Source: a bacterium
Lineage (GTDB): Bacteria; Zixibacteria; MSB-5A5; GN15; FEB-12
DNA: 10,414 nt
Assembly: GCA_030629485.1 (NCBI GenBank)
Contig: DAOVOW010000038.1
Location: 1-10,414 of the forward strand
Direction of reading: 5' to 3'
In this document: positions 1 to 10,414 of the stretch, one piece after another
Position numbering within the stretch: position 1 is the stretch's first letter
How the letters are laid out: every line of letters starts with the position of its first letter
Notes under the pieces: model-generated
The model's input: the letters and a program-made list of their open reading frames with translations, nothing else
Database searches by the model: none
What the model was told of the DNA's origin: nothing
Translations under genes and position numbers: made by a program

Positions 1-259
1 CATTGAAGGGTTCGAGGCCGGCGGCCACGTCCGTCAGCCCGACCGCAACGTTTCCCACTACCGCAGTCAACGGCCCTTGACCTAAAGAACATGAGTCGGC
101 GGCCCACAGGGCACATTTTTCCTTCGCACAGGGAACCATCATTGCCGTAACGGCCTGGGCGTTTTGATGTTCGATAACTTGGGGCATGGCAACCGCTATG
201 GGCCGCCCGCTCATAAACGGACAGATTTTTTGATCGGCAGACGTGTTGACAAGGTTCAT
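1..259 (-). CDS. Small cysteine-containing protein, 3' end cut by window edge
   Basis: The frame opens with ATG at 259-257, which overlaps the TGA of the upstream 357-residue gene as ATGA, so translation is probably coupled. It stays open for 86 codons to the left edge. The visible protein has four cysteines: C13 in KICPFMSG, C44 and C49 in VPCAKEKCALW, and C57. A CPxxS element followed by a PCxxxxCALW element and a last cysteine looks like a metal-binding or iron-sulfur arrangement. Short proteins with this pattern occur in phage and plasmid sequences, but I know of no assigned function. The C-terminal part is small-residue rich (AVVGNVAVGLTDVAAGLE) and may form a helix. If the molecule is circular and closes exactly at the window ends, the frame would stop after 93 residues. 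Coding status is likely; function is unknown. Confidence 0.72.
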   Translation of the reverse strand, partial: MNLVNTSADQKICPFMSGRPIAVAMPQVIEHQNAQAVTAMMVPCAKEKCALWAADSCSLGQGPLTAVVGNVAVGLTDVAAGLEPFN

Positions 260-1329
260 GGTGTTTCCCTTTCAGGATCGGTGTAGAGGTCAAAGATTTC
301 AGTATAATAGATCGTGAACTTTTCCCGTAGGGATGCATCCTCGGCAAAGTCCTCGGTCAGTTGATTCTCGGCAATGTCCAGACCAACCTCACGCAACGCG
401 TTCATCTCGGCGCGTTTGTCTTTGCTCAAACCAAAGACGTGATCGAACATAGCCACGACCCGTTTTGGTTCTTTAGGGGGGTCGAGACGAAAAGCGTTTA
501 TCACTTCCGCCAGCATTGCCATTAACCCGAACTCCGGTTGTGCCATAGGCTCGTCTCCTTCCTGGTTTGTTTTAGGCGCACCGGAATCGATCCTGCCAGT
601 GGGCTGGGGCTTGTCCTTAAGCAGTTTTGTCGTCCTTCGCTGACGTGAATAACCACCGGCAAGGATCGATCCGGTTTGCCTGATTGCTTCTTGCAACAAT
701 GTATATAAATTACTGCCATCGACTGATCTGTCAAAAATCTCTGGGACGGCCCCGCGCAACTTAGTCAGAAGCTCCAATGGATCGGACGGGGGGGACGACT
801 TTTCTTTGATAAGCTCAACAAACGTGCCGAGTAGGTTAGTGTTAAAGTCCGGCGGCTCTGGCAGCAGCGTCCTGACGGCGCGCATCCACAGAACCAGGTC
901 TTTGATCTTCTGAACCTCATTGATAGGTACCGACACGCCACCCACGTCTAACCTGGGCTGATCGATCACGCTCAGGGCGCCCGTTGCTTCTTGACCGTCC
1001 TCTTTTTCAATTTTTGGAATCCAGGGGGATATGTCAAACTTGCGAACGGCCATATAGCGCCCACTGCTGGCGTTGCGTTTGTCAGCCCGAAAGCGACCGC
1101 CGCCATACTTTTTCTTGACATCACTGTAAGTCGTGCCTGGCTCCAGGTCACACAGATAACCGCGAATGCGAACGTTCTGCCACGTCTCCGGCTCGATGCG
1201 GACAAGCTCGACCCGAAAGGGGACACCTTCGTCCGGTTCAAAGAGATCACTAAAGTCGTCTACCTGCGTGTGATCGATCTCCACGAGCTCGGGGGAGTCA
1301 CCGTCTGTCGTGTCTATTTTTTTCGGCAT
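256..1329 (-). CDS. Uncharacterised acidic two-domain phage protein (357 aa)
   Basis: I do not recognise a family with confidence. The ATG at 1329-1327 shares one base with the TAA of the M15 peptidase gene (TAATG), and GAAAGG sits just upstream, so the start is well supported. Residues 1-35 are acidic. Residues 36-105 look like a small beta domain with a KKYGGGRFR element (73-81); similar YGGGxY/F elements occur in phage proteins of unknown role. Residues 135-225 are predicted mostly helical. A charged proline-containing linker follows (226-265), then a helical C-terminal domain (266-350) rich in acidic residues and ending near FTIYYTEIFDLY. There is no signal peptide or membrane span, so it is probably cytoplasmic. 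Its place after the capsid and lysis genes would fit a scaffolding, assembly or replication-accessory protein, but that is inference only. Confidence 0.85.
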   Translation of the reverse strand: MPKKIDTTDGDSPELVEIDHTQVDDFSDLFEPDEGVPFRVELVRIEPETWQNVRIRGYLCDLEPGTTYSDVKKKYGGGRFRADKRNASSGRYMAVRKFDISPWIPKIEKEDGQEATGALSVIDQPRLDVGGVSVPINEVQKIKDLVLWMRAVRTLLPEPPDFNTNLLGTFVELIKEKSSPPSDPLELLTKLRGAVPEIFDRSVDGSNLYTLLQEAIRQTGSILAGGYSRQRRTTKLLKDKPQPTGRIDSGAPKTNQEGDEPMAQPEFGLMAMLAEVINAFRLDPPKEPKRVVAMFDHVFGLSKDKRAEMNALREVGLDIAENQLTEDFAEDASLREKFTIYYTEIFDLYTDPERETP

Positions 1330-1865
1330 TATTTACCTTTCGTCAGTTTCCAAAGAACGAGAGCGGCAAGAACGATAAGGCCGACCCCCAAACCAGTTTT
1401 GGCCTTTGTCGAGATAAACCGGACAACGCGATCCAAAGACGTGTACTCAGTAGTGCGAACCGGCGCGCCGGTTACCGGATCGGGCTGCCGATAGATCAAG
1501 GCCCCCCACGTAGCCGGACTCTGAGGGGTTCTATCAGTGCGCGTGTCAAGATGAAAAGAATGGAAACCCTTTTCGTTGCGATAGAGACCAAAGCCAGAAA
1601 ACAATTCGCTGTGCCTGATTTCCGTTAGCACCTTCAAGGGATCGAGGCCGACCCAAACAGTGTCAACAGCGCGACCTAAAGGATGCTGTGACCCTGGCCG
1701 CTCCGCCGAGACGGGACGCCAATCTGACAGAATGTGAGCCTTGAGACCCAGGCGCCTTGTCAGTATATCAAGGGCATGGACTACTGAAAAGTGTAACTTG
1801 TCAGGGTAACGAAAGTCACCTGGCCGGTAGTAACGAAGCGATTGCCACTGTGAAGCGTCTATCAT
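1329..1865 (-). CDS. M15-type zinc peptidase with C-terminal membrane anchor (putative virion lysin)
   Basis: This is probably a peptidoglycan peptidase of the M15 clan (D-Ala-D-Ala carboxypeptidase or L-Ala-D-Glu endopeptidase type), which cleaves peptide stems in the cell wall. The visible signature is SQHPLGRAVD at 59-68, giving zinc ligands H61 and D68 (H-x6-D), and GFHSFHLDTR at 100-109 with H105 as third ligand. GFGLYRNEKGFHSFHLD matches the usual G-x-G-x-Y ... H-x-D block. H102 lies where some relatives have an acidic catalytic residue, so the exact chemistry is unclear. After about 150 residues of enzyme, residues 156-173 form one membrane span (KTGLGVGLIVLAALVLWKL) followed by the basic end TKGK. 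There is no N-terminal signal peptide. The layout suggests a virion-membrane lysin acting during entry or exit. The gene is coupled to the downstream gene by TAATG. Confidence 0.85.
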   Translation of the reverse strand: MIDASQWQSLRYYRPGDFRYPDKLHFSVVHALDILTRRLGLKAHILSDWRPVSAERPGSQHPLGRAVDTVWVGLDPLKVLTEIRHSELFSGFGLYRNEKGFHSFHLDTRTDRTPQSPATWGALIYRQPDPVTGAPVRTTEYTSLDRVVRFISTKAKTGLGVGLIVLAALVLWKLTKGK

Positions 1866-1885
1866 GTCCCCAGCTTTCTATCCTT

Positions 1886-2323
1886 CTAACCCCTATCCCA
1901 AAGAAAATATCGAATCTTGACCCCCGCGATCTGATCTGTCGCCGCAATGTTGTTAGCGTTGACAATCAAAGACGATCCGGTCTCTAACTGGTAACAGCAT
2001 CCGAACGGTTGATAGACCTCAGAAGTCTCCGCCGTGTAATCCAACGGCGCAATGCCCATTGTAAAGAAATAAGTCCAGACTTTGGTGGCCGGCTGTGTAA
2101 TCGCGGCCGGAGTATTGGGCAGAGTAACACCGCCGTCCAGAATGTAAACCTCAACGAGCCGGTCAGCAACATCAGCACACGTTGTAAAGTGTACCCTGAC
2201 AGCAACGACCTGCACAACGGCATTGACCGGACAAGCCCAGGTCAATAGAGTACCGGCAGCAGGATCGGCTGGCCCTACGTTGACAACATCGTGACGGTCA
2301 CCCATGAAAGCACTCGGTCTCAT
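1886..2323 (-). CDS. Small beta-rich putative structural protein (145 aa)
   Basis: No family is recognised. The protein has alternating hydrophobic and polar stretches (VNAVVQVVAVRVHF, RLVEVYILDGG, SSLIVNANNI, VKIRYFLWDRG) typical of a beta sandwich. There is no signal peptide, membrane span or catalytic motif. The length matches the run of neighbouring 133-190 residue beta-rich proteins, and the ending, a final strand carrying an aromatic residue, resembles theirs. The ATG at 2323-2321 is preceded by AAGGA (2330-2334) at a spacing of six bases, and the SD overlaps the end of the upstream gene, whose TAG is three bases away. M7 is a less likely alternative start. It is the last member of the structural series, followed after 20 bases by the M15 peptidase gene. 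Inference: a minor capsid, vertex or decoration subunit. Confidence 0.8.
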   Translation of the reverse strand: MRPSAFMGDRHDVVNVGPADPAAGTLLTWACPVNAVVQVVAVRVHFTTCADVADRLVEVYILDGGVTLPNTPAAITQPATKVWTYFFTMGIAPLDYTAETSEVYQPFGCCYQLETGSSLIVNANNIAATDQIAGVKIRYFLWDRG

Positions 2324-2326
2324 TGG

Positions 2327-2887
2327 CTATCCTTCCCCACACTTAGGTTGAGAGTGACACGCTGCCGTTGGAGTGTAAGCCGCTCCAACAGGAACGTAGT
2401 CGGCGAAAAGGCAATGGTTCATATTGGTGGTAGTACAAACCCCCAGGGGATCAGGAAACATACCACCTGTCCAGCTTTTTTGACTCATACCAACCACCTT
2501 AGTCGTCCAACGGATACCCGCCGACCAGGTCATGGTGGGGCCATTGATATCGAGAACGCCGAGGGCATACAGCCCACCCGCCAACGGAATGTTTACGACT
2601 ACCGACCACCACCGTGCCGGCCCGCCAGCCACGATTGAAACTGTGGGCGTAGTCGCCAACAACGGCCAGACACTATAAGCGCCAACGTTGGCGTCATAGA
2701 TTCCGAATTGCAAGACAGACGTTTCAGCAGCCGGTGAGCCATTAGCATAGATCGAGACCATTGTGACGACACAGGCCGGCACCGGCAGGCCCCAGGACGC
2801 AAAAAAACTGAGGTCAAAATGTCCATACAAACTGTCATTCAGATAACCTGTAGAAGCAGAGGGCACATTGTTACCGAAGATTGGCAT
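2327..2887 (-). CDS. Putative spike or fibre-like beta-sandwich protein (186 aa)
   Basis: The sequence pattern recalls beta-sandwich modules of phage fibre and spike proteins. An upfront strand pair (VVTMVSIYANGSPAAE, 40-55) is followed by LQFGIYDANVG (59-69), a VWPLLATTPTVSIVAG segment (73-88), WWSVVVNIPLAGGLYALGV (93-111) and a late FADYVPVGAAYTP (161-173). The order 'I-Y-D ... LLA ... V-x-A-G ... L-x-A-G-x-Y-x-L' is what I associate with carbohydrate- or receptor-binding tail modules. This is pattern recognition, not a domain match. Five cysteines occur, two near the C-terminus (C177, C183). The ATG at 2887-2885 directly abuts the TGA of the upstream gene, and AAGGA lies four bases before it. 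It may be the host-recognition protein of the particle. Confidence 0.8.
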   Translation of the reverse strand: MPIFGNNVPSASTGYLNDSLYGHFDLSFFASWGLPVPACVVTMVSIYANGSPAAETSVLQFGIYDANVGAYSVWPLLATTPTVSIVAGGPARWWSVVVNIPLAGGLYALGVLDINGPTMTWSAGIRWTTKVVGMSQKSWTGGMFPDPLGVCTTTNMNHCLFADYVPVGAAYTPTAACHSQPKCGEG

Positions 2888-3310
2888 TCATTCCTTCCAA
2901 GCCCTTGCGGTAAAACTAACGTTACTCACGTTACCAGTGCCAGCAACCACAAGACTCAACCGTAAGAACTGGGTGGCAATTATGAGACAGCCGGATGTAC
3001 CGCCGAGTGGCGGAGCTACGTTGTAAAGAGTGTCAACTAACAAGGTGCCGCTATGAGGATGCAAGAACCACTGTCGCATTGCAGCCGTGGACGCACCCAC
3101 GTCTACTTGCAAACTGATGCTGGCGGTCGTATATGCACAATAGAAACTAAAGGCGAAATATCGCAAGTCTCGGACCAACGCCACACCTGAGCCAGCCGGC
3201 GCAAAAGCACCGACCACATTACAGCCCAGGGGGACAACAATCGTGGCGGGTGCGGTGATGGTTTGATCGTACAACCACCATACCTGATAACTGTTGCGAT
3301 TCTGTTCCAT
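2888..3310 (-). CDS. Small beta-rich putative structural protein (140 aa)
   Basis: No family is recognised. I chose the ATG at 3310-3308 because it shares a base with the TAA of the upstream gene (TAATG), a junction used repeatedly here. An in-frame ATG at 3334 would add eight residues but overlap more deeply. The protein alternates short hydrophobic strands (YQVWWLYDQTI, ATIVVPLG, LRYFAFSFYCAY, ISLQVDVGA, FLRLSLVVAGTG) with glycine and threonine turns and ends in VSFTARAWKE. This fits a single beta-sandwich or jelly-roll of about 15 kDa. There is no signal peptide, true membrane helix or catalytic motif. The terminal strand with an aromatic residue just before the end is shared with the proteins at 3310-3720 and 1886-2323, which hints at distant paralogy. 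Inference: a minor capsid or vertex subunit. Confidence 0.78.
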   Translation of the reverse strand: MEQNRNSYQVWWLYDQTITAPATIVVPLGCNVVGAFAPAGSGVALVRDLRYFAFSFYCAYTTASISLQVDVGASTAAMRQWFLHPHSGTLLVDTLYNVAPPLGGTSGCLIIATQFLRLSLVVAGTGNVSNVSFTARAWKE

Positions 3311-3720
3311 TACCAGCTTCTCAGTTGAACCCAACCAAAGGCGTTAGTGTGCGGGCCCAGGCCATTGATAAAAATGAACCGCGCCGCCAGACCGCCAATT
3401 TCAAACCCCGTCAGTGTGTCCACGACATCTTCGCCGGTCAAGGGAAATATGAACGATTCATAAAAGGTGCCGTCACCTGGATCGATGTCAACGCGAAGGG
3501 CGCCACATTCCCGATCTTTTTTTATTGCAAAGCTCAAGACGTTGAAAGTCCCCAACAGCCAGTCACGATGAGCATTAAAGGGCGTAGCCGTTACTTGAAC
3601 GTCTTGCGTGCCACTGGCGGCAAGCTGAACAACGAAAAAGTGGGCGGCCTGAGTACAGGGCCACACCTGAGCGCGGGGATCGGGCGACACTTTGCGAAAC
3701 AATGTAGCTTCGTAACTCAT
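3310..3720 (-). CDS. Small beta-rich putative structural protein (136 aa)
   Basis: No family is recognised. The preferred start is the ATG at 3720-3718, whose overlap with the upstream TGA (ATGA) and preceding GGTGGA make it more likely than an ATG nine codons upstream at 3747. The 136-residue product begins MSYEATLFRKVSPDPRAQVW. Beta-type segments include HFFVVQLAA, TQDVQVTATPF, FNVLSFAIKKD, GALRVDIDPGDG and ARFIFINGLG, ending GWVQLRSW. DIDPGDG is acidic and could bind a metal, but there is no conserved neighbour to support that. There is no membrane span or signal. Length, composition and ending match the adjacent 140- and 145-residue proteins, so these may be related subunits of one assembly. 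Its function is inferred only from the cassette. Confidence 0.8.
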   Translation of the reverse strand: MSYEATLFRKVSPDPRAQVWPCTQAAHFFVVQLAASGTQDVQVTATPFNAHRDWLLGTFNVLSFAIKKDRECGALRVDIDPGDGTFYESFIFPLTGEDVVDTLTGFEIGGLAARFIFINGLGPHTNAFGWVQLRSW

Positions 3721-4310
3721 ATTCCACCCACCGGTTTTTCCAGCCAACCACGAACGATAACCGCCACTGCAATATACTCGACAAAGGCAGTGTCGTAACG
3801 GCGCAAGACAGCCGACAAAGTTGAATTGCTCTGAACATAGATCGGTTCAATGTCCAAAATGAACGGCATACTGCCAAAGGCAAACCCGAACCCGGACCCG
3901 CCTACTATAGCCCGCGTAGCGTCTTGCCAGAAGGGAACGGCACCACCGTCAACATATAACTCAACCTCGTAGATGACGGAACCCTGCAAGAACGGATCGG
4001 ATAGTTTCCAACCGATGCCACTGACAACCAAGACGCGTCCTTGCGGCACTGTGAACGTCAGGATCGTTTGAGTCGGAGTCGTGTCGGCGGGATTGTTAAA
4101 CGGGCCTTCGACCGCGTTAAACAAAAGAACCGACTGGTCAGAACCGCGTAGCTCAGTAAGACGCGCCTTCGCTTGTTCCTCTACAAGTAAGCGCTTGTTC
4201 AAGTCCTCATGTACTTCTTTAGTTGCCACGCTTGGCGTGGCCGGAGTGGGCTGAACAAGACGACTGCCCTGGTCGTAATTGTAAGTAGCAAAGCGCCTTC
4301 GATGCGTCAC
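3717..4310 (-). CDS. Putative minor capsid protein: helical N-terminal arm plus beta domain (197 aa)
   Basis: This is a two-part protein. Residues 1-28 are basic and proline-containing. Residues 29-56 (VATKEVHEDLNKRLLVEEQ and on) are charged and helical, possibly a coiled-coil arm. Residues 60-190 are beta-rich, with TILTFTVPQGRVLVVSGIGW (82-101), VIYEVELYVDGGAVPFW (112-128), a glycine-rich GGSGFGFAFG turn, and a late EYIAVAVIVRGWLEKP strand. TVPxGxVLVVxGIGW is the sort of strand seen in single jelly-roll phage proteins. Translation must start at GTG 4310-4308, because an in-frame TAA lies one codon upstream; GGAG at 4319-4322 supports it. It overlaps the downstream gene by ATGA. An arm-plus-sandwich design suits a trimeric minor capsid, spike-base or penton protein. 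That role is inference. Confidence 0.8.
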   Translation of the reverse strand: MTHRRRFATYNYDQGSRLVQPTPATPSVATKEVHEDLNKRLLVEEQAKARLTELRGSDQSVLLFNAVEGPFNNPADTTPTQTILTFTVPQGRVLVVSGIGWKLSDPFLQGSVIYEVELYVDGGAVPFWQDATRAIVGGSGFGFAFGSMPFILDIEPIYVQSNSTLSAVLRRYDTAFVEYIAVAVIVRGWLEKPVGGI

Positions 4311-4313
4311 GCG

Positions 4314-4715
4314 TTACACTCCGAAAAGTTTCGCTCCATGCAGGATGAGCTGACACTGGGTTCGAGTCGCCACGTTCGAGGTGAAAGTGACAACAATGGT
4401 TGTGCTGGCCGCAAACAGGTGCGGCGGCGTCAGATCGTACGGCGGTGCGCCAGGTGTAAGAAATATGTCCAGCGCAGCGTTAAGGTTGAACCAGTTCCGA
4501 TTGACCTGAGACTCATTGATCTGCACGCTACCGGCGAAAGTAGTCACCAAGACCTCTGAGCCGGCAGCACCTTGCTTGACGTGGGCGCTAATGCGATAGC
4601 ACAAAAAGGGTGCATCGGCGGCCAAAAGAATGTTTGACGTGGCTATGCCACCGGCGGCTGCTATAGCCGCCGACCATCCGGTCGTGAAAAAGAAATTTTC
4701 TTTACGCTGGGGCAT
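4314..4715 (-). CDS. Small single-jelly-roll-like putative capsid protein (133 aa)
   Basis: This is a short protein with a hydrophobic Ala/Ile segment at 15-33 (an AAIAAAGGIATS stretch) and strands such as FLCYRISAHVKQG, EVLVTTFAGSVQI, FNLNAALDIFL, TTIVVTFTSN and QCQLILHGAKLFGV. A late 'P-x-L-F-x-A-x-S-T-x-I-x-V-x-F' block followed by 'L-x-L-H-G-x-K-x-F' resembles the closing strands of many small viral jelly-roll proteins; this is pattern recognition only. The ATG at 4715-4713 has a GAGGA Shine-Dalgarno four bases away. It is the first gene after the 99-base gap and hairpin that follow the major-capsid candidate, so it opens the minor-protein series. It could be a second capsid subunit. I see no enzymatic motif. 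Confidence 0.8.
   Translation of the reverse strand: MPQRKENFFFTTGWSAAIAAAGGIATSNILLAADAPFLCYRISAHVKQGAAGSEVLVTTFAGSVQINESQVNRNWFNLNAALDIFLTPGAPPYDLTPPHLFAASTTIVVTFTSNVATRTQCQLILHGAKLFGV
4319..4322 (-). promoter_or_regulatory. Shine-Dalgarno GGAG fixing a GTG start
   Basis: On the minus strand GGAG lies eight bases before the GTG at 4310-4308. Because an in-frame TAA is only one codon upstream of that GTG and no ATG follows soon, this site decides the start of the 197-residue protein. Confidence 0.65.
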
Positions 4716-4814
4716 TACGTCCTCACAGTGTTAAAGTTTTTTTACAGGGGACAGTGGTCACTGACTTGTCCCCCGTAGAACCAAGAAATCACCCACAATA
4801 AAGGGGTTCCTTTT
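4716..4814 (-). other. Only sizeable intergenic gap in the window (99 bases)
   Basis: This gap separates the major-capsid candidate from the minor structural genes. It holds an 11-bp hairpin (4743-4777), a run of seven A on the minus strand just after it, and the GAGGA Shine-Dalgarno of the next gene. No short gene is visible. I see no convincing -35/-10 pair, though AT-rich sequence such as TTTAAC lies close to the next start. Confidence 0.7.
4743..4777 (-). promoter_or_regulatory. Hairpin with 11-bp stem and 13-base loop
   Basis: The arms 4743-4753 and 4767-4777 are complementary along 11 positions around a loop at 4754-4766. In minus-strand RNA or DNA the one non-Watson-Crick position is a G-U or G-T wobble (TACGGGGGACA against TGTCCCCTGTA). 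In plus-strand RNA it would be an A-C mismatch. The element is therefore better formed in the coding-sense strand. It is followed in that sense by A residues, not U, so it is not an ordinary intrinsic terminator. Candidate roles are an mRNA stability or processing element, a complementary-strand origin, or a packaging signal of an ssDNA genome. The hairpin is directly visible; the role is inference. Confidence 0.7.
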
Positions 4815-5387
4815 CTATCGTACCGGCCGGAGCGCCGTTCCCCAGAGAACAAAGACCACGTGAACGGCAGCCGCAATCGTGTCCATGTGCTCCAGGATGA
4901 CCTCAATCGTTTCTTGGGAGCGCAGAGTAAGCGGCTGATCGAGATACCACTTATTCTGAATCGCGGCCACGCCGTTAGCCAGGTAGAACTCTGTCGCGGC
5001 GGGGGTGATGTTCGAGAAAAAGACGAAGTCGGCACCACCGGCGGGGATCATCTGGCATGGCAACTTGAGAAACTCAGTCGAGCCGCCGATCATCATGCGG
5101 ATATTGCCCGCAAACACCGCTCGAATATCAGCGTCAGCCGGTAGAGCGCCGGCCTGCACCGACTGTCGAATGTGCATCGTGATCGCATTGATCTGCAGCT
5201 CGTTACCTGGCTCCAAGCGCCCCGCTTGAACCAGGTTGGTGTGACGATCATCTTTATTTACTCCGGCCACCAGAAGGCCGCCTTTCGGTACAGTGAAAAA
5301 GTTGCCGATTACGGCGGCGGCGGCCAGGTGTATAGTGTCGTACAACGGCTGAGTGTATACGAGACCTTTTCCTGCTACGGTTGGCAT
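4815..5387 (-). CDS. Candidate major capsid protein, jelly-roll-like (190 aa)
   Basis: This is the best candidate for the major capsid protein. The 190-residue protein is beta-rich with no membrane helix or signal. Notable blocks are KGLVYTQPLYDTIHL (7-21), NFFTVPKGG (29-37), RHTNLVQAGRLEPGNELQI (48-66), YLDQPLTLRSQETIEVIL (148-165) and the closing VHVVFVLWGTALRPVR (175-190). A late 'sq-x-hydrophobic-E-V-x-L' strand, then a final 'V-F-V-L-x-G ... R-P-V' ending, fits small jelly-roll capsid proteins of uncultivated tailless phages as I remember them, but I cannot verify homology here. AAAGGA sits seven bases before the ATG at 5387-5385. It follows the arginine-rich membrane protein by 30 bases and is followed by the hairpin gap, a good position for separate high expression. 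The length suits one jelly-roll domain, not a double one. Confidence 0.8.
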   Translation of the reverse strand: MPTVAGKGLVYTQPLYDTIHLAAAAVIGNFFTVPKGGLLVAGVNKDDRHTNLVQAGRLEPGNELQINAITMHIRQSVQAGALPADADIRAVFAGNIRMMIGGSTEFLKLPCQMIPAGGADFVFFSNITPAATEFYLANGVAAIQNKWYLDQPLTLRSQETIEVILEHMDTIAAAVHVVFVLWGTALRPVR

Positions 5388-5394
5388 GATATAT

Positions 5395-5400
5395 TCCTTT
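5395..5400 (-). promoter_or_regulatory. Shine-Dalgarno AAAGGA of the capsid candidate
   Basis: AAAGGA lies seven bases before the ATG at 5387-5385, in a purine-rich AGAAGAAAGGA stretch. It is one of the better ribosome binding sites in the window, consistent with high translation. Confidence 0.6.
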
Positions 5401-5417
5401 CTTCTCTCGAGTACAGA

Positions 5418-6065
5418 TTAACTCATGACGGCGGGGCTAAAGTCGGTTTCGACATAGCCCGCCATACTCTCATCACCTGACGCGTCCACGTAGCCGGACA
5501 CGCCAACGGCGTCCTCGAGTTCCTCCGTCAAAACGAAATCGCCCTCTTGGCCCAGACCAGAGAGACCCAGACGCGGCGCTAAGTATTGACGAAAGAGATC
5601 AACGAGAATGAGCGCCAGGCCGCCGGCCCAGACCAACTGTGGCGCCCGCCGATCTTTGGTGACCAACCCGATGCCGAACGCGGTCGCGGCGGTACCGCCC
5701 AACCTGACCACGTAAGCAATCGGGCCGGTATACGGGATCTGCGGGACAAACCGCCTTATCAGCCCAGGAATGACGGTCGATCCGATAGCGCCAGTCGCCA
5801 CAAAGACGCCCGACATCATATCGAAGCCTTTGATTATGGCCGGATTACGGCGGCGGCGATATGGCCTGGCATAAGACCGCCGAGCAGGTCTGCGTCTTGA
5901 GCGCCGGCGTGGATTGCTCAAGGCAGCCAGGATCGGCGGGTTGCGCCGGCGTCTTGAACGAGTCCTACGGGCGCGCCCACCGAAACCGTAGCTTCGCTGT
6001 TTGGCGGTGTAAGAACGGCGTTTGGAGCGCCGGCGTGGATTTTCAACAACTGGGATCGTAGGCAT
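5418..6065 (-). CDS. Arginine-rich, membrane-spanning putative DNA-binding virion protein (215 aa)
   Basis: The first ~75 residues are extremely basic and built from two alternating repeat units: NPRRRS(K/R)RR at 9-17 and 51-59, and RRRRNP(P/A)I at 38-45 and 70-77. Three hydrophobic segments follow at about 83-103, 117-135 and 142-158. An acidic tail (QEGDFVLTEELEDAVG and on, 173-209) ends the protein. A basic arm, membrane anchor and acidic tail in one chain would suit a protein holding the phage genome against an internal membrane, or neutralising packaged DNA. Similar NP-flanked arginine arms occur in proteins of uncultivated phages, but no function is established that I know of. The ATG at 6065 has a perfect AGGAGG five bases upstream, implying strong translation. 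SGLG occurs at 169-172. Confidence 0.85.
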   Translation of the reverse strand: MPTIPVVENPRRRSKRRSYTAKQRSYGFGGRARRTRSRRRRNPPILAALSNPRRRSRRRPARRSYARPYRRRRNPAIIKGFDMMSGVFVATGAIGSTVIPGLIRRFVPQIPYTGPIAYVVRLGGTAATAFGIGLVTKDRRAPQLVWAGGLALILVDLFRQYLAPRLGLSGLGQEGDFVLTEELEDAVGVSGYVDASGDESMAGYVETDFSPAVMS

Positions 6066-6070
6066 GTAAA

Positions 6071-6076
6071 CCTCCT
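6071..6076 (-). promoter_or_regulatory. Perfect AGGAGG Shine-Dalgarno
   Basis: AGGAGG stands five bases before the ATG at 6065-6063 of the arginine-rich protein gene. It is the strongest ribosome binding site seen here and indicates bacterial translation. Confidence 0.75.
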
Positions 6077-6082
6077 AACTTG

Positions 6083-6586
6083 CTAACCAACAATGCCTTC
6101 TTCTGTTATATTAAATCTGCCATGCAAAAGCAACATATTTTTTTGCCCGCCCTTCGCGCTACCTGACGCGAAAACCTGAGCCGGTCGATCAAAGTCGTGC
6201 GTGTAAATGCGCGGCTTGCCGTCCTCTTTATCGGAAAGGTAGTCGATACGGACTGCATGGCCGAGCAAAACTAACGCCCTCGGCCATGTGATCTTAACGC
6301 GACTCAGCCGGCGTGGACGTAAACCATGAAAGCGCTGCGACAGACTGACCGCCCGCTTGACTGTTGCACGTGAAACATTCGCCCGCGCTGTGCGACCCTT
6401 TTTGCCCGTTGCGACAAACTCAACGTCTTGCCGAGAGCGCCAGACGTGACTGTAGCCCTTCTGACCAGAGCGTTTTTTATAGTCAATGCGATAGCGGGTC
6501 GGTGTCGACCGGCCAATCCAACCCATACGCCGGCGGCCCCTTTGCGTAAAAAAGACTTGATTCGCTTTAATCGGGTTACCGCCCAT
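6083..6586 (-). CDS. Basic uncharacterised phage protein (167 aa)
   Basis: No family is recognised with confidence. The N-terminal half (1-100) is strongly basic, with many R/K residues (RGRRR at 16-20, RRLSRVK at 92-98). The C-terminal domain (100-167) looks like a compact beta domain: ALVLLGHAVRIDYLSDKEDG (104-123), PRIYTHDFDRP (125-135) and MLLLHGRFNITEEGIVG (151-167). The 'idYlSDK-x-DG ... Y-x-H-x-F ... G-x-F-x-I-x-x-x-GI' pattern looks conserved, and I believe similar short proteins exist in uncultivated phages, without known function. There is no membrane span or signal. Its start (ATG 6586, GAAGG nearby) overlaps the upstream gene by 11 bases. Lying between membrane-protein genes, it may be a nucleic-acid-binding or assembly protein; that is inference. 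Confidence 0.82.
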   Translation of the reverse strand: MGGNPIKANQVFFTQRGRRRMGWIGRSTPTRYRIDYKKRSGQKGYSHVWRSRQDVEFVATGKKGRTARANVSRATVKRAVSLSQRFHGLRPRRLSRVKITWPRALVLLGHAVRIDYLSDKEDGKPRIYTHDFDRPAQVFASGSAKGGQKNMLLLHGRFNITEEGIVG

Positions 6587-7139
6587 AGCGCGCCTTCAAG
6601 GCCGGCAGCACAGCGAACAGTCCCACGCCGCCGATCACCAACCATTTAATTATCCCGCTAACATCACCGAACAGGCCAGGCCTTTCTTTGAGGGATTCCT
6701 GTAGAACGCTTTCCGAGATGCGTCCAGCCGTCACGCCGTCAATCATGCGCGAAATGTTCATCTGTTTTTTGATGTAGCCGCCGGCCCACAAGGCCGCCGC
6801 GACACCGCCGACAATAATGACGCCAGCGATCACGATAGGTATAAGACCTAAGCCCGACAGACCACTGGCGGTTCCAACGTCAGACACAAAGCGATCTACG
6901 CGCTCCGCAAAACGGCGTTGTGTTTCAGAAATGTTTTCTGACCAGTTAGGGCGTATCGTTTCCCACAGACGCGGGAAATCCCGAAACCAGCCCAACACCT
7001 CACGCGCTTGCTCGGCAGTGAAAAGACCCTGGGCGCGTCCCATCTTGAATCTTGCCCAGTCTTCTTTGGCTTGCTCAAAGATGTCGGGGAAACGATAAAA
7101 GGCTTCCCTGGCCGCTTCTGTTTCAAAAAAGGATGACAT
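6576..7139 (-). CDS. Two-span membrane protein with helical N-terminal domain (187 aa)
   Basis: Residues 1-85 are charged and helical with many aromatics (SSFFETEAAREAFYRF, WFRDFPRLWETIRPNW). A first membrane span lies at about 98-120 (LIPIVIAGVIIVGGVAAALW), a short soluble stretch at 121-160, and a second span at about 162-182 (GIIKWLVIGGVGLFAVLPAL) followed by the basic end KARYGR. The motif LSGLGL directly precedes the first span. No family is recognised. Its ATG at 7139-7137 shares a base with the TAA of the upstream gene (TAATG), and its end overlaps the next gene by 11 bases, so it is tightly coupled. It is probably part of the virion membrane or a membrane-assembly factor. Confidence 0.83.
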   Translation of the reverse strand: MSSFFETEAAREAFYRFPDIFEQAKEDWARFKMGRAQGLFTAEQAREVLGWFRDFPRLWETIRPNWSENISETQRRFAERVDRFVSDVGTASGLSGLGLIPIVIAGVIIVGGVAAALWAGGYIKKQMNISRMIDGVTAGRISESVLQESLKERPGLFGDVSGIIKWLVIGGVGLFAVLPALKARYGR

Positions 7140-7882
7140 TATCTGCGCCGTCTTTTTTTCTTTGGCTTCGATTTGACAAAGCTGTCATAAAGAATGTAAC
7201 CGCCAATAGCCAGCATTCCGTATTTCAGAAAAGGCGAAGGCGCTACGGCAGCCGCCTCAACGAAAGTCGGCACAGTTTCGTCCTCAAACGTAATGCCCTG
7301 GACAGTCGGAGCGACAGTGACTATCGGTGCGGGTTCTTTCAAAGAGATGTCTTGCCCCGTCATTGGAGCACCGGCGCCGGTAATGCTTTTTGAAACAATA
7401 TCTGCACCCGCCACGACCTTAACATCGGTCGCTCTATAGGTAGCCCCTGACGGCGTGCGTAGACGCTCAATGACCCTGGGGGTGAATCCTTTTTGCCTAA
7501 ACAACACAGGAGAATCCCTGCGAATCTTTGTCTCGGCAAGCCTGATCGCCGTAGTGATTGCCGGCTGAATTAAGGTCGGCGGACGTGTTACACCGACAAG
7601 CGGCCTGATAGTCGTGACCACCTGAGTAATTGGATCGATAAATGCTGTCCTGCGCTGCATGAGTACCGGAGCGGGCGTCACGACTATAGGTTCGGGCGGT
7701 GGGGGTGTTGATATCCTAAGCGGCGCGACAAGTGTTCTTACCTTACCCAGTCCTGACAATTCAGTTCGGCGCGGCCCCCTGGTAAGCCTACGGGCAAAGC
7801 GCGGCGTCAGTGTGCAACCTGGGAAACGTCTCACCAAACCTTGACCAAGACCGGACGATTCCGTAATATCAACGTAGGCCAT
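7139..7882 (-). CDS. Proline-rich tail-anchored protein with polybasic C-terminus (247 aa)
   Basis: No family is recognised. Residues 1-50 are basic and contain SGLG twice (10-13 and 43-46). Residues 55-75 are proline-rich (TPPPPEPIVVTPAPV). The middle (76-210) is a mix of threonine-, proline- and valine-rich extended segments. One membrane span lies at about 215-233 (LKYGMLAIGGYILYDSF), preceded by SP and followed by KSKPKKKRRRR. Such a long basic end fixes the topology, placing the C-terminus on the cytoplasmic or virion-interior side, and could also bind DNA. The extended proline-rich region could span a periplasm or a gap between capsid and membrane. The gene is joined to both neighbours by TAATG. 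Confidence 0.82.
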   Translation of the reverse strand: MAYVDITESSGLGQGLVRRFPGCTLTPRFARRLTRGPRRTELSGLGKVRTLVAPLRISTPPPPEPIVVTPAPVLMQRRTAFIDPITQVVTTIRPLVGVTRPPTLIQPAITTAIRLAETKIRRDSPVLFRQKGFTPRVIERLRTPSGATYRATDVKVVAGADIVSKSITGAGAPMTGQDISLKEPAPIVTVAPTVQGITFEDETVPTFVEAAAVAPSPFLKYGMLAIGGYILYDSFVKSKPKKKRRRR

Positions 7883-8373
7883 TAGTGCCTCCTTGCGGGC
7901 GTCGGTTGCATTATGGTTCGCATGACCATAAAGCCGACCAGACCGAGACCAATTAAAACGACTGGCGAACTTAGAAGCTCAGAGACGCCAACGGGCGGTG
8001 CCGGCATCACCGCCGCTACCGCAGGTACACCAGGACGCGCAGGGACAGCTGGAGCAGGGGGAGTAACCGCCTGAAGAAGGCGCTGGCGAACTTTTTGAAA
8101 AGCACCAGGCGGTGCATTTTTCCATATAACAGAGTCAGCAGACCCCACCCTCAGATCGTTTTCCCAAGAGGCATTTATCCAATCAACAGCTTTTTGGTCG
8201 ACAGCCACCATGTTAGGCTCCCAACTCTCACCGACGCAAATCGGCTGTAGGCGATTCCAAGCAGGCCCGGTAGTCGGGGCACGGCCGAATAGTTTCTTAA
8301 AAGCGAAGGTGGCAACGGGTACGGCTAAGGGTGTTATTCCCAGACGACCAAGCTGTGAAACGTTTACGTACAT
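7882..8373 (-). CDS. Tail-anchored protein sharing its membrane segment with the upstream protein (163 aa)
   Basis: No family is recognised. Residues 1-30 contain a moderately hydrophobic segment (ITPLAVPVATFAFKKLFG). Residues 40-100 form a soluble region with several tryptophans (W39, W51, W65, W70, W84). Residues 103-130 are a proline/alanine linker. Residues 136-151, SPVVLIGLGLVGFMVM, are one membrane span followed by RTIMQPTPARRH. These 16 residues are identical to the membrane span of the transglutaminase-like protein encoded just upstream, and the linker before them is also Pro/Ala rich. The ATG at 8373 follows the upstream TAG by four bases, with AGGAAAGGAAG as ribosome binding region. 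It is probably a partner of the transglutaminase-like protein in the same membrane. Confidence 0.82.
   Translation of the reverse strand: MYVNVSQLGRLGITPLAVPVATFAFKKLFGRAPTTGPAWNRLQPICVGESWEPNMVAVDQKAVDWINASWENDLRVGSADSVIWKNAPPGAFQKVRQRLLQAVTPPAPAVPARPGVPAVAAVMPAPPVGVSELLSSPVVLIGLGLVGFMVMRTIMQPTPARRH
7921..7968 (-). repeat. Membrane-tail repeat, copy 2
   Basis: These 48 bases encode the same 16 residues as 8411-8458. The two copies match at 40 of 48 bases, and all eight differences are synonymous. Confidence 0.9.
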
Positions 8374-8377
8374 AGCT

Positions 8378-9550
8378 CTATCTTCCTTTCCTGGGTCGCA
8401 TGATACTTTGCATCACCATAAACCCGACCAGGCCGAGGCCAATCAACACAACCGGCGATTTCAACATCTCGGCCATGCCGGCCCGGGCCGCGGCTGGCGT
8501 TACTGGCGCCTGCACGAGACCAACGGGTAGAGCGGCGGCGGCCTCAGTCACCATTGTCCTTATCGTTTCTATTGGTTTTTCGCCGGTAGCAGCCGAATAG
8601 ACAGTACCGGCCACTTTCTTGACTCCGTCCCAGATTGAACCGAGAAATCTTTCAAGACTTTCGAGACCTGACATGGTTCCGATGGGTTTGGTTGACGGCC
8701 CCAGGTTGGCGGGCGCCCACGCCTGAAAGTCGACAATAGCTTCTCGAACCGGATCGACAATGAGTGGTTTGTCGGTTGGAAAGTTGCCCTCGTCAATGAC
8801 GCGCACATACGAAGCCACGTCCGCTTCATTGATAAGACCGGCCTGCCAGTTTCGCGTTAAAACGTTAAGCGTTTCCGCTCGAAATGCCGCTTGTGCCTGC
8901 CCGCGCGTGACCGGCAAGTGAGTAGGTAAAACGGCCATATTTGTCACCTTTCCCTTGTGATTGTAAACCCGTTCAACCGGAAACTTCGGCGGACGCCACC
9001 CGAACCCACGCTGCGGCTCTGTTGTGTCAGCCGCCCACCAACGACCTTTCGCGTAGATCTCCGGCCAAATGTGTAGCATATTGTCTTGTTCATGACCCAC
9101 CGTCCGAAAACGAGCCGGAATGCCAACAGCCAAAGCCATGCCAAGCAATAAAGCTGTATGGTCGTCACAGTCACCCATGCCCAGACGAAGGGTAACGAGG
9201 GGACTTTGTACCGTCTCAATGCCAACGGGGTCTTTTTGATAACGTATGTGAGAAGCAATCCAAGAATAAAGTTTTTTGGCTTCGGCAAGATGGTTCTTTG
9301 ATGGGACATCACGCAAAATCCGGCTTACAAATAACCTGAGCCTTTGATTTTTCAAGTCTTGTTCAATCAGCCTGGCCATCTCACTGAGCGTCATGTCAGT
9401 ACCGATGACGCTTTGTGGTATAGCCGCCAATCGAACCTTCATGGCCCATGAAAACGGCTTTTCCAGTTTCTTGTCAAGCGAAATAAGTCGATCACTGAAA
9501 AAAAGGTTGATTTGTCGGGTAAACTGCCATATTGGCAGAGAAGCGGTCAA
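8378..9550 (-). CDS. Transglutaminase-like cysteine enzyme with C-terminal membrane anchor (390 aa)
   Basis: Residues 85-180 carry the transglutaminase-like (papain-like) core. GMGDCDDHTALL gives catalytic C128, DNMLHIWPEIY gives H160, and GRWWAADTTEP gives D175: a complete Cys-His-Asp triad. Enzymes of this fold are peptidases, amidases or cross-linking transferases, and the substrate cannot be read from sequence. Residues 220-280 are a helical and mixed domain, 290-355 a flexible Ala-rich region, and 365-380 the membrane span SPVVLIGLGLVGFMVM followed by QSIMRPRKGR. The start is uncertain. TTG at 9550 overlaps the Rep TGA (TTGA) but lacks a clear Shine-Dalgarno sequence; the next ATG, at 9442, would remove 36 residues and spare the catalytic core. 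It is first after Rep and is followed four bases later by the gene with the same tail. Confidence 0.87.
   Translation of the reverse strand: MTASLPIWQFTRQINLFFSDRLISLDKKLEKPFSWAMKVRLAAIPQSVIGTDMTLSEMARLIEQDLKNQRLRLFVSRILRDVPSKNHLAEAKKLYSWIASHIRYQKDPVGIETVQSPLVTLRLGMGDCDDHTALLLGMALAVGIPARFRTVGHEQDNMLHIWPEIYAKGRWWAADTTEPQRGFGWRPPKFPVERVYNHKGKVTNMAVLPTHLPVTRGQAQAAFRAETLNVLTRNWQAGLINEADVASYVRVIDEGNFPTDKPLIVDPVREAIVDFQAWAPANLGPSTKPIGTMSGLESLERFLGSIWDGVKKVAGTVYSAATGEKPIETIRTMVTEAAAALPVGLVQAPVTPAAARAGMAEMLKSPVVLIGLGLVGFMVMQSIMRPRKGR
8411..8458 (-). repeat. Membrane-tail repeat, copy 1
   Basis: This encodes SPVVLIGLGLVGFMVM at the end of the transglutaminase-like protein. The residues are identical to those encoded at 7921-7968, with only synonymous base differences. 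Confidence 0.9.
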
Positions 9551-10414
9551 AATGGCATACTGTAAGGCGTATCACTGCCCTGCATTGCTTGCTCAATTTT
9601 GGTGAGAACGGCCCCTGTGTCGTCCTTTTCAAGCTGCCGGCGTAGATCATAATAGTCCAAAGCACAAGCATCGGCCAGGTCGCCGATCAGATCTGAATAA
9701 CGAAGCCGGCCCTGACACATAAAGCAAGTCAGCGCGCCTCCGGAGACGGTGATTGGCCTCACCTGGCCGTAGAAAACACCGCCAGCGCGCAGCCGGCGCG
9801 ATCCTTTTATCATATTGGCGTACTGGGCCAGGCGGACATAGCTGTCGGTCGCGGGCGGCTTGGCAATATACTTGACTACGTACTGAATTGAGTCTCTGAG
9901 GCTTTTCTTGCGGATATCGATCCCGAAGCTGTCGCCGGTGATCTTTGACCATTCATGGCGCAGCATTCGCACCGCTCGAAACGGCCCCCAGGTTAAGGCA
10001 TGGATATGCAGATTGTTGTTGTCTCGACCGACCTCGATGACGGCAAGCCAGCCGGCGCCCAACCAAATCCGACCGTCCTCACCTGGCTTGCGGCCAGCCC
10101 TCGGCCTACGTTTTTCCACCACTTTGCCTGACCGAGAGCGCCGACAGACATGCTTGCCAAAATAGAGGTTGAGCAAGTCTTTTGATTCTCGATAAAGTCG
10201 TTTAATGCCAACGCGATCCGGCAAGTCGTCACCGAACCGTTTCGAGGTGATCGTCAGGGTTACCTGAGACAAAATAAAGTTGGCCGGACTCTGCCGGCGC
10301 GCGCTTATCAGAGTGTCTTTGATTCGAGGATAGAGACGCTTCACATAGCGGCGGGCGCATGGCTCACAAATCCGAGACCGACAATGCTGTCTTATAAAAT
10401 AGCGCAGGTTGTCC
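9547..10414 (-). CDS. Rolling-circle (HUH) replication initiator, 5' end cut by window edge
   Basis: This is a Rep endonuclease that would nick the replication origin and join the strand ends through a tyrosine. Numbering from the right edge, 288 residues are visible. A cysteine cluster QHCRSRICEPCARRY (9-23: C11, C16, C19) looks like a zinc-binding N-terminus. FILSQVTLTI (46-55) is the likely motif I, NNLHIHALTWG (133-143) holds the HUH pair H136 and H138, and SIQYVVKYIAKP (175-186) holds Y178, K181 and Y182 of the tyrosine motif. A CFMCQG element follows near 230. The GTG at 10344 gives 265 residues but would exclude the cysteine cluster; the frame is open to the edge, so I place the start beyond 10414. 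One tyrosine motif with an HUH fits ssDNA phage or plasmid Reps. There is no helicase domain. Its TGA overlaps the next start as TTGA. Confidence 0.9.
   Translation of the reverse strand, partial: DNLRYFIRQHCRSRICEPCARRYVKRLYPRIKDTLISARRQSPANFILSQVTLTITSKRFGDDLPDRVGIKRLYRESKDLLNLYFGKHVCRRSRSGKVVEKRRPRAGRKPGEDGRIWLGAGWLAVIEVGRDNNNLHIHALTWGPFRAVRMLRHEWSKITGDSFGIDIRKKSLRDSIQYVVKYIAKPPATDSYVRLAQYANMIKGSRRLRAGGVFYGQVRPITVSGGALTCFMCQGRLRYSDLIGDLADACALDYYDLRRQLEKDDTGAVLTKIEQAMQGSDTPYSMPF

What the first reader, a model, noticed from the sequence alone, without database searches (positions are those of the whole stretch)
1..10414. Probable new lineage of tailless ssDNA phage with an internal membrane
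Seen: an HUH Rep, an M15 peptidase, at least six proteins with predicted membrane spans, and seven consecutive small beta-rich proteins, all on one strand in about 10.4 kb, with no terminase, packaging ATPase, polymerase or tail gene. Known: FLiP (Finnlakeviridae) is a small circular ssDNA phage with an internal membrane and a double jelly-roll capsid protein. Inference: this is a comparable virus type, but its shell may be built from several single-jelly-roll proteins and it carries a transglutaminase-like enzyme.
Basis: partly seen in the sequence, partly recalled or inferred. Interest (0 to 1): 0.75.

Follow-up and report, generated by a model that had tools for sequence, protein, structure and literature searches.

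The report
Tailless single-jelly-roll phage, probably membrane-containing
The window is most of the genome of a little-known kind of small tailless bacterial virus whose shell is probably built from simple jelly-roll proteins around a membrane; whether its DNA is single- or double-stranded is not settled.

Summary
The observation largely holds: 17 minus-strand genes with an HUH Rep, a transglutaminase-like protein with Cys-His-Asp and a C-terminal anchor, an M15-type peptidase with anchor, and seven small proteins in a row; no terminase, polymerase or packaging ATPase was found. The window is one whole contig, cut inside genes at both ends. Relative L014 (same host family, other genus) has 15 of 17 genes by BLAST in the same order and a 118-bp terminal overlap, so is probably a 16.2-kb circle. 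Two of the seven small proteins were folded; both are jelly rolls whose top solved matches are virion chains of internal-membrane viruses (SPV1, HHIV-2), though non-viral jelly rolls score nearly as high. The transglutaminase's only true phage relative among 50,697 records is gp34, annotated structural, of membrane phage SSIP-1. IMG/VR holds distant relatives that keep the order transglutaminase, 167-aa, jelly roll, jelly roll: one circular-looking 16.8-kb contig and one 37-kb contig. This is a new lineage (my judgement: family level) near the single-jelly-roll membrane viruses, not FLiP-like by any match found. Single-stranded DNA is unproven.

The parts
9547..10413 (-). HUH rolling-circle Rep, N-terminus cut by the contig end; L014 relative has a weak IS91-type zinc-binding match (under cut-off)
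8378..9550 (-). Transglutaminase-like protein, Cys128-His160-Asp175 invariant in 5 relatives, C-terminal membrane anchor; homologue of SSIP-1 gp34
7882..8373 (-). 163-aa protein with nearly the same C-terminal membrane anchor as the transglutaminase
7139..7882 (-). 247-aa protein with basic tail; counterpart in L014 and (weak, E 0.003) L015
6576..7139 (-). 187-aa protein with two predicted membrane spans; conserved in L014 and L015
6083..6586 (-). 167-aa protein ending in (E/D/K)GIxG; relatives in L014, L015, Aquificaceae L010/L011 and IMG/VR L017-L020, L023
5418..6065 (-). Arg-rich NPRRR protein; possible DNA-holding protein (inferred)
4815..5387 (-). Candidate major capsid protein, single jelly roll (pLDDT 83.7); best solved match SPV1 virion chain 6oj0_A; relatives in IMG/VR L017, L020
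4314..4715 (-). Second single jelly roll (pLDDT 93.1), candidate second capsid or vertex protein; relative in IMG/VR L020, weak in L017
3717..4310 (-). 197-aa small protein, not folded
3310..3747 (-). 145-aa small protein, not folded; weak profile match to SSIP-1 gp50 (54%)
2888..3334 (-). 148-aa small protein, counterpart in L014 by position only
2327..2887 (-). 186-aa small protein, not folded
1886..2323 (-). 145-aa small protein; two tandem homologues in L014
1329..1865 (-). M15-type zinc peptidase with C-terminal membrane anchor, likely cell-wall enzyme
256..1329 (-). 357-aa protein of unknown function, conserved in L014 (400 aa)
2..259 (-). 86-aa protein, C-terminus cut by the contig end; L014 homologue 120 aa

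Best explanation
A small, probably circular tailless bacteriophage of a new lineage. Likely working: single jelly-roll proteins (4815-5387, 4314-4715) with minor proteins form the shell over a membrane vesicle that carries tail-anchored proteins (transglutaminase, 163 aa, M15, 187 aa); the Arg-rich protein helps hold the DNA; the HUH Rep copies the genome by rolling circle; the anchored M15 peptidase, and perhaps the transglutaminase, open the cell wall at entry or exit; packaging uses no virus-encoded ATPase that I could find. Shown by sequence or prediction: the two jelly rolls, the Rep and enzyme motifs, the anchors, the conserved gene order, the probable circles of two relatives. Inferred: internal membrane, capsid role, entry role, ATPase-free packaging, strandedness (I lean slightly to double-stranded; the first two rivals below differ mainly on that point and are not exclusive of this statement).
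Confidence: 0.79

Rival explanations
1. One reading: an ssDNA membrane phage working like FLiP, packaging single strands made by Rep without an ATPase, but with single instead of double jelly rolls.
For: HUH Rep and no ATPase found, as in FLiP (ICTV profile, whole held text); all genes on one strand; T over A excess at four-fold sites 0.31 and 0.33 in window and L014 against 0.19 and 0.24 in samples of their bins, FLiP 0.51; the only phage records weakly matching the L014 Rep are two 4.2-kb Ruegeria phages (E 4e-3; ssDNA microviruses as I recall).
Against: The skew excess over host is small and dsDNA P23-77 has 0.27 (PM2 0.12, SSIP-1 0.04, SNJ1 -0.02). SNJ1 is circular dsDNA and uses an HUH Rep (ICTV profile, whole held text). 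L014 carries an N6/N4 DNA methylase. 16 kb would be large for a bacterial ssDNA phage (recalled).
Confidence: 0.4
2. A dsDNA sister of the SNJ1/P23-77 viruses (Halopanivirales) or of SSIP-1, whose packaging ATPase is too divergent to see.
For: Two single jelly rolls, HUH Rep with a weak IS91-type zinc-domain match (5.8e-5, under cut-off), probable circle of 16.2 kb against Simuloviridae 16-19 kb; shared transglutaminase with dsDNA SSIP-1; larger IMG/VR relatives of 34-43 kb, one with a strict Walker A in a 339-aa frame at its edge (L019).
Against: No profile match to 21 SNJ1 or 30 P23-77 proteins (best 14%); Rep against SNJ1 RepA 2.2%; capsid candidates against their capsid proteins 2.6% or less. 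No ATPase among 23 L014 proteins (best 0.9%), but the method joins only 3 of 6 known ATPase pairs above 50%.
Confidence: 0.37
3. A plasmid or other non-viral element with secreted beta proteins rather than a virus.
For: Rep has weak plasmid relatives (17 Lactobacillales records, best E 1e-3); no terminase.
Against: Jelly rolls with virion chains as top hits, a homologue of an annotated virion protein, a cell-wall peptidase, long conserved order, relatives in a virus collection, and an Aquificaceae relative with transglycosylases and an integrase.
Confidence: 0.06

Closest known systems
[quoted passage not shown]
   Same: Transglutaminase with C-terminal anchor (gp34, annotated structural); described as membrane-containing with two capsid protein types; of 21 SSIP-1 proteins tested gp46 is best against the 190-aa profile, but only 15% over 21 columns
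   Different: 43.8 kb, ATPase, integrase and primase annotated; next best protein match only 54% (145-aa protein with gp50)
IMG/VR contigs L020 (16.8 kb) and L017 (37.4 kb)
   Same: Transglutaminase, 167-aa-type, 190-aa-type and 133-aa-type genes in the same order
   Different: Distant in sequence; no Rep relative found; L017 contig more than twice as long
Simuloviridae (SNJ1)
   Same: Circular genome of 16-19 kb, HUH Rep, two single jelly-roll capsid proteins
   Different: Archaeal host, packaging ATPase, no detectable protein relative
Portogloboviridae (SPV1)
   Same: Best solved fold match; single jelly-roll hexamer and penton proteins; circular genome; the word ATPase does not occur in its ICTV profile (passages)
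   Different: Archaeal, about 20 kb, no recognisable replication initiator, no sequence similarity seen
Finnlakeviridae (FLiP)
   Same: Small circular genome, genes on one strand, Rep, no ATPase, lytic enzyme
   Different: Double jelly-roll capsid protein, ssDNA, no protein similarity found
Aquificaceae element in L011
   Same: Transglutaminase, 167-aa-type and Arg-rich proteins in the same order
   Different: Transglycosylases and tyrosine integrase; no match to the capsid candidates; ends not determined

Membership tests
[quoted passage not shown]
   Two window proteins fold as single jelly rolls; 15 others were not folded; no notable profile match to FLiP proteins
Finnlakeviridae | Circular ssDNA genome in the virion | not testable with these tools
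   Composition indecisive
Finnlakeviridae | Rolling-circle Rep without a packaging ATPase | tested here: inconclusive
   Rep met; no ATPase found, but the test is of limited sensitivity and the window lacks part of the genome
[quoted passage not shown]
   Two single jelly rolls predicted; that they are major capsid proteins is inferred
Simuloviridae / Halopanivirales | Putative packaging ATPase | tested here: inconclusive
   None found in window or L014, but the motif scan found the ATPase in 3 of 4 control viruses (SNJ1 missed) and gave a hit in ATPase-free FLiP; hhalign joins 3 of 6 control pairs
Simuloviridae / Halopanivirales | Internal lipid membrane | not testable with these tools
   Membrane anchors only
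SSIP-1-like phages | Transglutaminase with C-terminal anchor in the virion | tested here: met
   Homology and anchor; virion location is as annotated for SSIP-1, not tested for the window
SSIP-1-like phages | Homologous capsid proteins | tested here: inconclusive
   gp46 15%; top BFVD hit I1ZBH9 (211 aa, 4.6e-5) has the length of gp46 but its identity is a guess
Inoviruses | Zot-type morphogenesis ATPase | tested here: not met
   No Zot family in 17 of 17 window proteins or 9 of 23 L014 proteins; no Walker A in window or L014; the window is not a complete genome

The most novel reading that the evidence does not exclude
A widespread group of ssDNA bacteriophages with an internal membrane and a shell of several single jelly-roll proteins, packaging without an ATPase: a bridge between single-jelly-roll dsDNA viruses and rolling-circle ssDNA phages. 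Its virion module (transglutaminase, 167-aa, Arg-rich, two jelly rolls) has moved between small Rep replicons, integrated elements and genomes of 34-43 kb, with an anchored transglutaminase acting on the shell or the cell wall.
Probability: 0.35. Interest if true: 0.85.

Novelty: new variant of a known kind. Interest (0 to 1): 0.67.

Why it matters
Few bacterial viruses with single jelly-roll capsids and internal membranes are described (P23-77, IN93 and SSIP-1 are the ones named in the passages I saw of PMC6356626 and PMC4958249). This group would add a small, common type without a visible packaging ATPase, give SSIP-1 gp34 a probable enzymatic identity, and show one virion module on genomes of very different size. 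It makes the question of how a membrane virus packages DNA without a motor testable.

Tried and rejected
Circularity of the window itself: no terminal overlap. That check reversed my draft statement that IMG/VR holds none; I raised the confidence from 0.77 to 0.79 for it and moved the two lower rivals by 0.02 and 0.01. My first ORF picking on L020 chose wrong frames and was replaced. CRISPR spacers: BLAST of the window on 132 genomes gave only short weak hits besides the window and L014; no array was examined. Strandedness from composition: indecisive (the script broke off, its tetranucleotide step was redone). Provirus ends in L011: no tRNA and no attachment repeat recognised. L012 and L013 (Thermoplasmata): only their transglutaminase matches ours; L013 looks cellular by eye. 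MT835747 reads as Bacteroidales chromosome by eye. Host naming: the ribosomal L2 search found nothing in this incomplete bin. The 357-aa protein against the 372-aa protein of L011: 0.6%. BFVD matches of the 133-aa protein: 3 under 0.001, all unnamed there. Fold matches that are not viral are told under evidence against. Five of the seven small proteins were not folded (two jobs only). The search scored only the 7999 best candidates, so 57 is a lower bound. In the alignment of the 133-aa protein I used 66 of its 68 homologues (P0065, P0090 left out).

Print: searches (some listings show only part of the papers found, e.g. 12 of 40). No listed title or abstract start described this family. Read whole: PMC12642351, PMC7654751; first of seven parts: PMC12324425 (Charybdis elements, 4.6 kb, not this); passages only: PMC9719478, PMC4958249, PMC6668415, PMC8459092, PMC6356626. 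The SSIP-1 paper is not held.
Full report
Check of the observation. The window is contig C231 of an unnamed MAG and reads as 17 consecutive minus-strand genes: a Rep cut at its start, a transglutaminase-like protein, proteins of 163, 247, 187 and 167 aa, an Arg-rich protein, seven small proteins, an M15-type peptidase, a 357-aa protein and a cut 86-aa protein. Family searches of all 17 identify only Rep, transglutaminase and M15.

Relatives. Of 98 related genomes searched with the transglutaminase, 60 have a match at 0.001 or better, nearly all weak and cellular-looking; besides the window only two are strong: L014, 16,342 bp, another genus of the same family (9e-89), and L015, 4,096 bp, in the window's own bin (1e-53). 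In L014, 15 of 17 window proteins have BLAST matches in the same order; the 163-aa and 148-aa proteins match by position only; all 7 L015 proteins compared match window proteins at 0.01 or better (recount of the 15). The ends of L014 overlap by 118 bp, as expected of an assembled circle of 16,224 bp; a linear genome with terminal repeats is not excluded. By the alignments the window corresponds to roughly 12 kb of it. Outside that part L014 has an N6/N4 DNA methylase and small unknown genes.

Spread. There are at least 57 homologues of the 190-aa protein, 68 of the 133-aa protein and 33 of the L014 Rep. Of these 158 entries 156 have a longest contig under 16.5 kb (exceptions 20.2 and 26.7 kb); 21 contig lengths recur in both jelly-roll lists and 6 in all three, which suggests but does not prove the same contigs. 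The 190-aa protein was found in 2 of 132 genomes of the phylum, the window's own included.

Wider group. The transglutaminase profile found 12 IMG/VR loci. On reading them, L020 (16,819 bp, 97-bp terminal overlap, so probably a 16.7-kb circle) carries the transglutaminase, then 167-aa-type (weak), 190-aa-type (1.3e-9) and 133-aa-type (3.5e-18) genes in the window's order; L017 (37.4 kb) carries the transglutaminase, 167-aa-type (2.9e-11), Arg-rich (BLAST 9e-10 to L014), 190-aa-type (1.5e-13) and, weakly, 133-aa-type genes. L018, L019 and L023 (contigs of 34-43 kb) share the transglutaminase and 167-aa type. No Rep relative was found in these five. An Aquificaceae 91-kb contig (L011) carries a related element with transglutaminase, 167-aa-type and Arg-rich proteins in the same order, plus transglycosylases and an integrase, but no match to the capsid candidates. 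So part of the virion module seems to travel between different replicons.

Link to a known virion. The transglutaminase profile matches SSIP-1 gp34 (98.9%, 3.7e-17) with Cys, His and Asp and a hydrophobic C-terminal tail in the same places; gp34 itself passes the Pfam cut-off. Its record annotates it as structural.

A shared anchor. The transglutaminase and the next protein carry nearly the same C-terminal membrane tail within one genome: 80% DNA identity over 65 nt in the window, 83% over 42 nt in L014, no such match in L015. Between window and L014 the transglutaminase tails show only an off-register 27-nt match. The anchor looks swapped or homogenised within a genome; the cause is unknown.

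Packaging and strandedness. No Walker A motif in window or L014; a looser search gives three unconvincing bits; L015 has one hit in a 70-aa frame. The scan finds the ATPases of SSIP-1, P23-77 and PM2, misses that of SNJ1, and gives one hit in FLiP, so it is only a fair test. For ssDNA: HUH Rep, no ATPase seen, one coding strand, slight T excess. For dsDNA: SNJ1 and PM2 are double-stranded with Reps, the methylase, the size. Composition does not decide. I put double-stranded slightly ahead.

Verdict. A real, little-known virus lineage, new at about family level in my judgement; a new variant of the single-jelly-roll membrane-virus type rather than a new kind. Membership in a named family is not claimed.

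Noticed in passing
window 7882-8000 and 8378-8500: Two adjacent genes share a nearly identical C-terminal membrane tail; the same pairing occurs in L014 with its own tail version, not in L015.
   Followed up: partly
L015:1-4096 (G000:C14): A second, different virus of the same family in the same MAG bin.
   Followed up: partly
L011:1942-12639: Aquificaceae contig with an integrated-looking element sharing transglutaminase, 167-aa-type and Arg-rich proteins, beside a transposase (IS110-like by eye) and a tyrosine integrase.
   Followed up: partly
L017, L018, L019, L023 (IMG/VR contigs of 34-43 kb): Larger relatives with transglutaminase and 167-aa type; L017 also the Arg-rich and 190-aa types; L019 has a strict Walker A at its edge (1-1017, minus).
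   Followed up: partly
L014:10962-11859: Tandem duplication (45% identity) of the gene that is single in the window at 1886-2323.
   Followed up: no
L034:21296-22210 (SSIP-1 gp34): SSIP-1 structural protein gp34 is transglutaminase-like (Pfam 8.9e-7, over its cut-off); its record gives no enzymatic name.
   Followed up: yes
L067 (MT835747.1): A record deposited as Bacteriophage sp. reads, by eye, as bacterial chromosome.
   Followed up: partly
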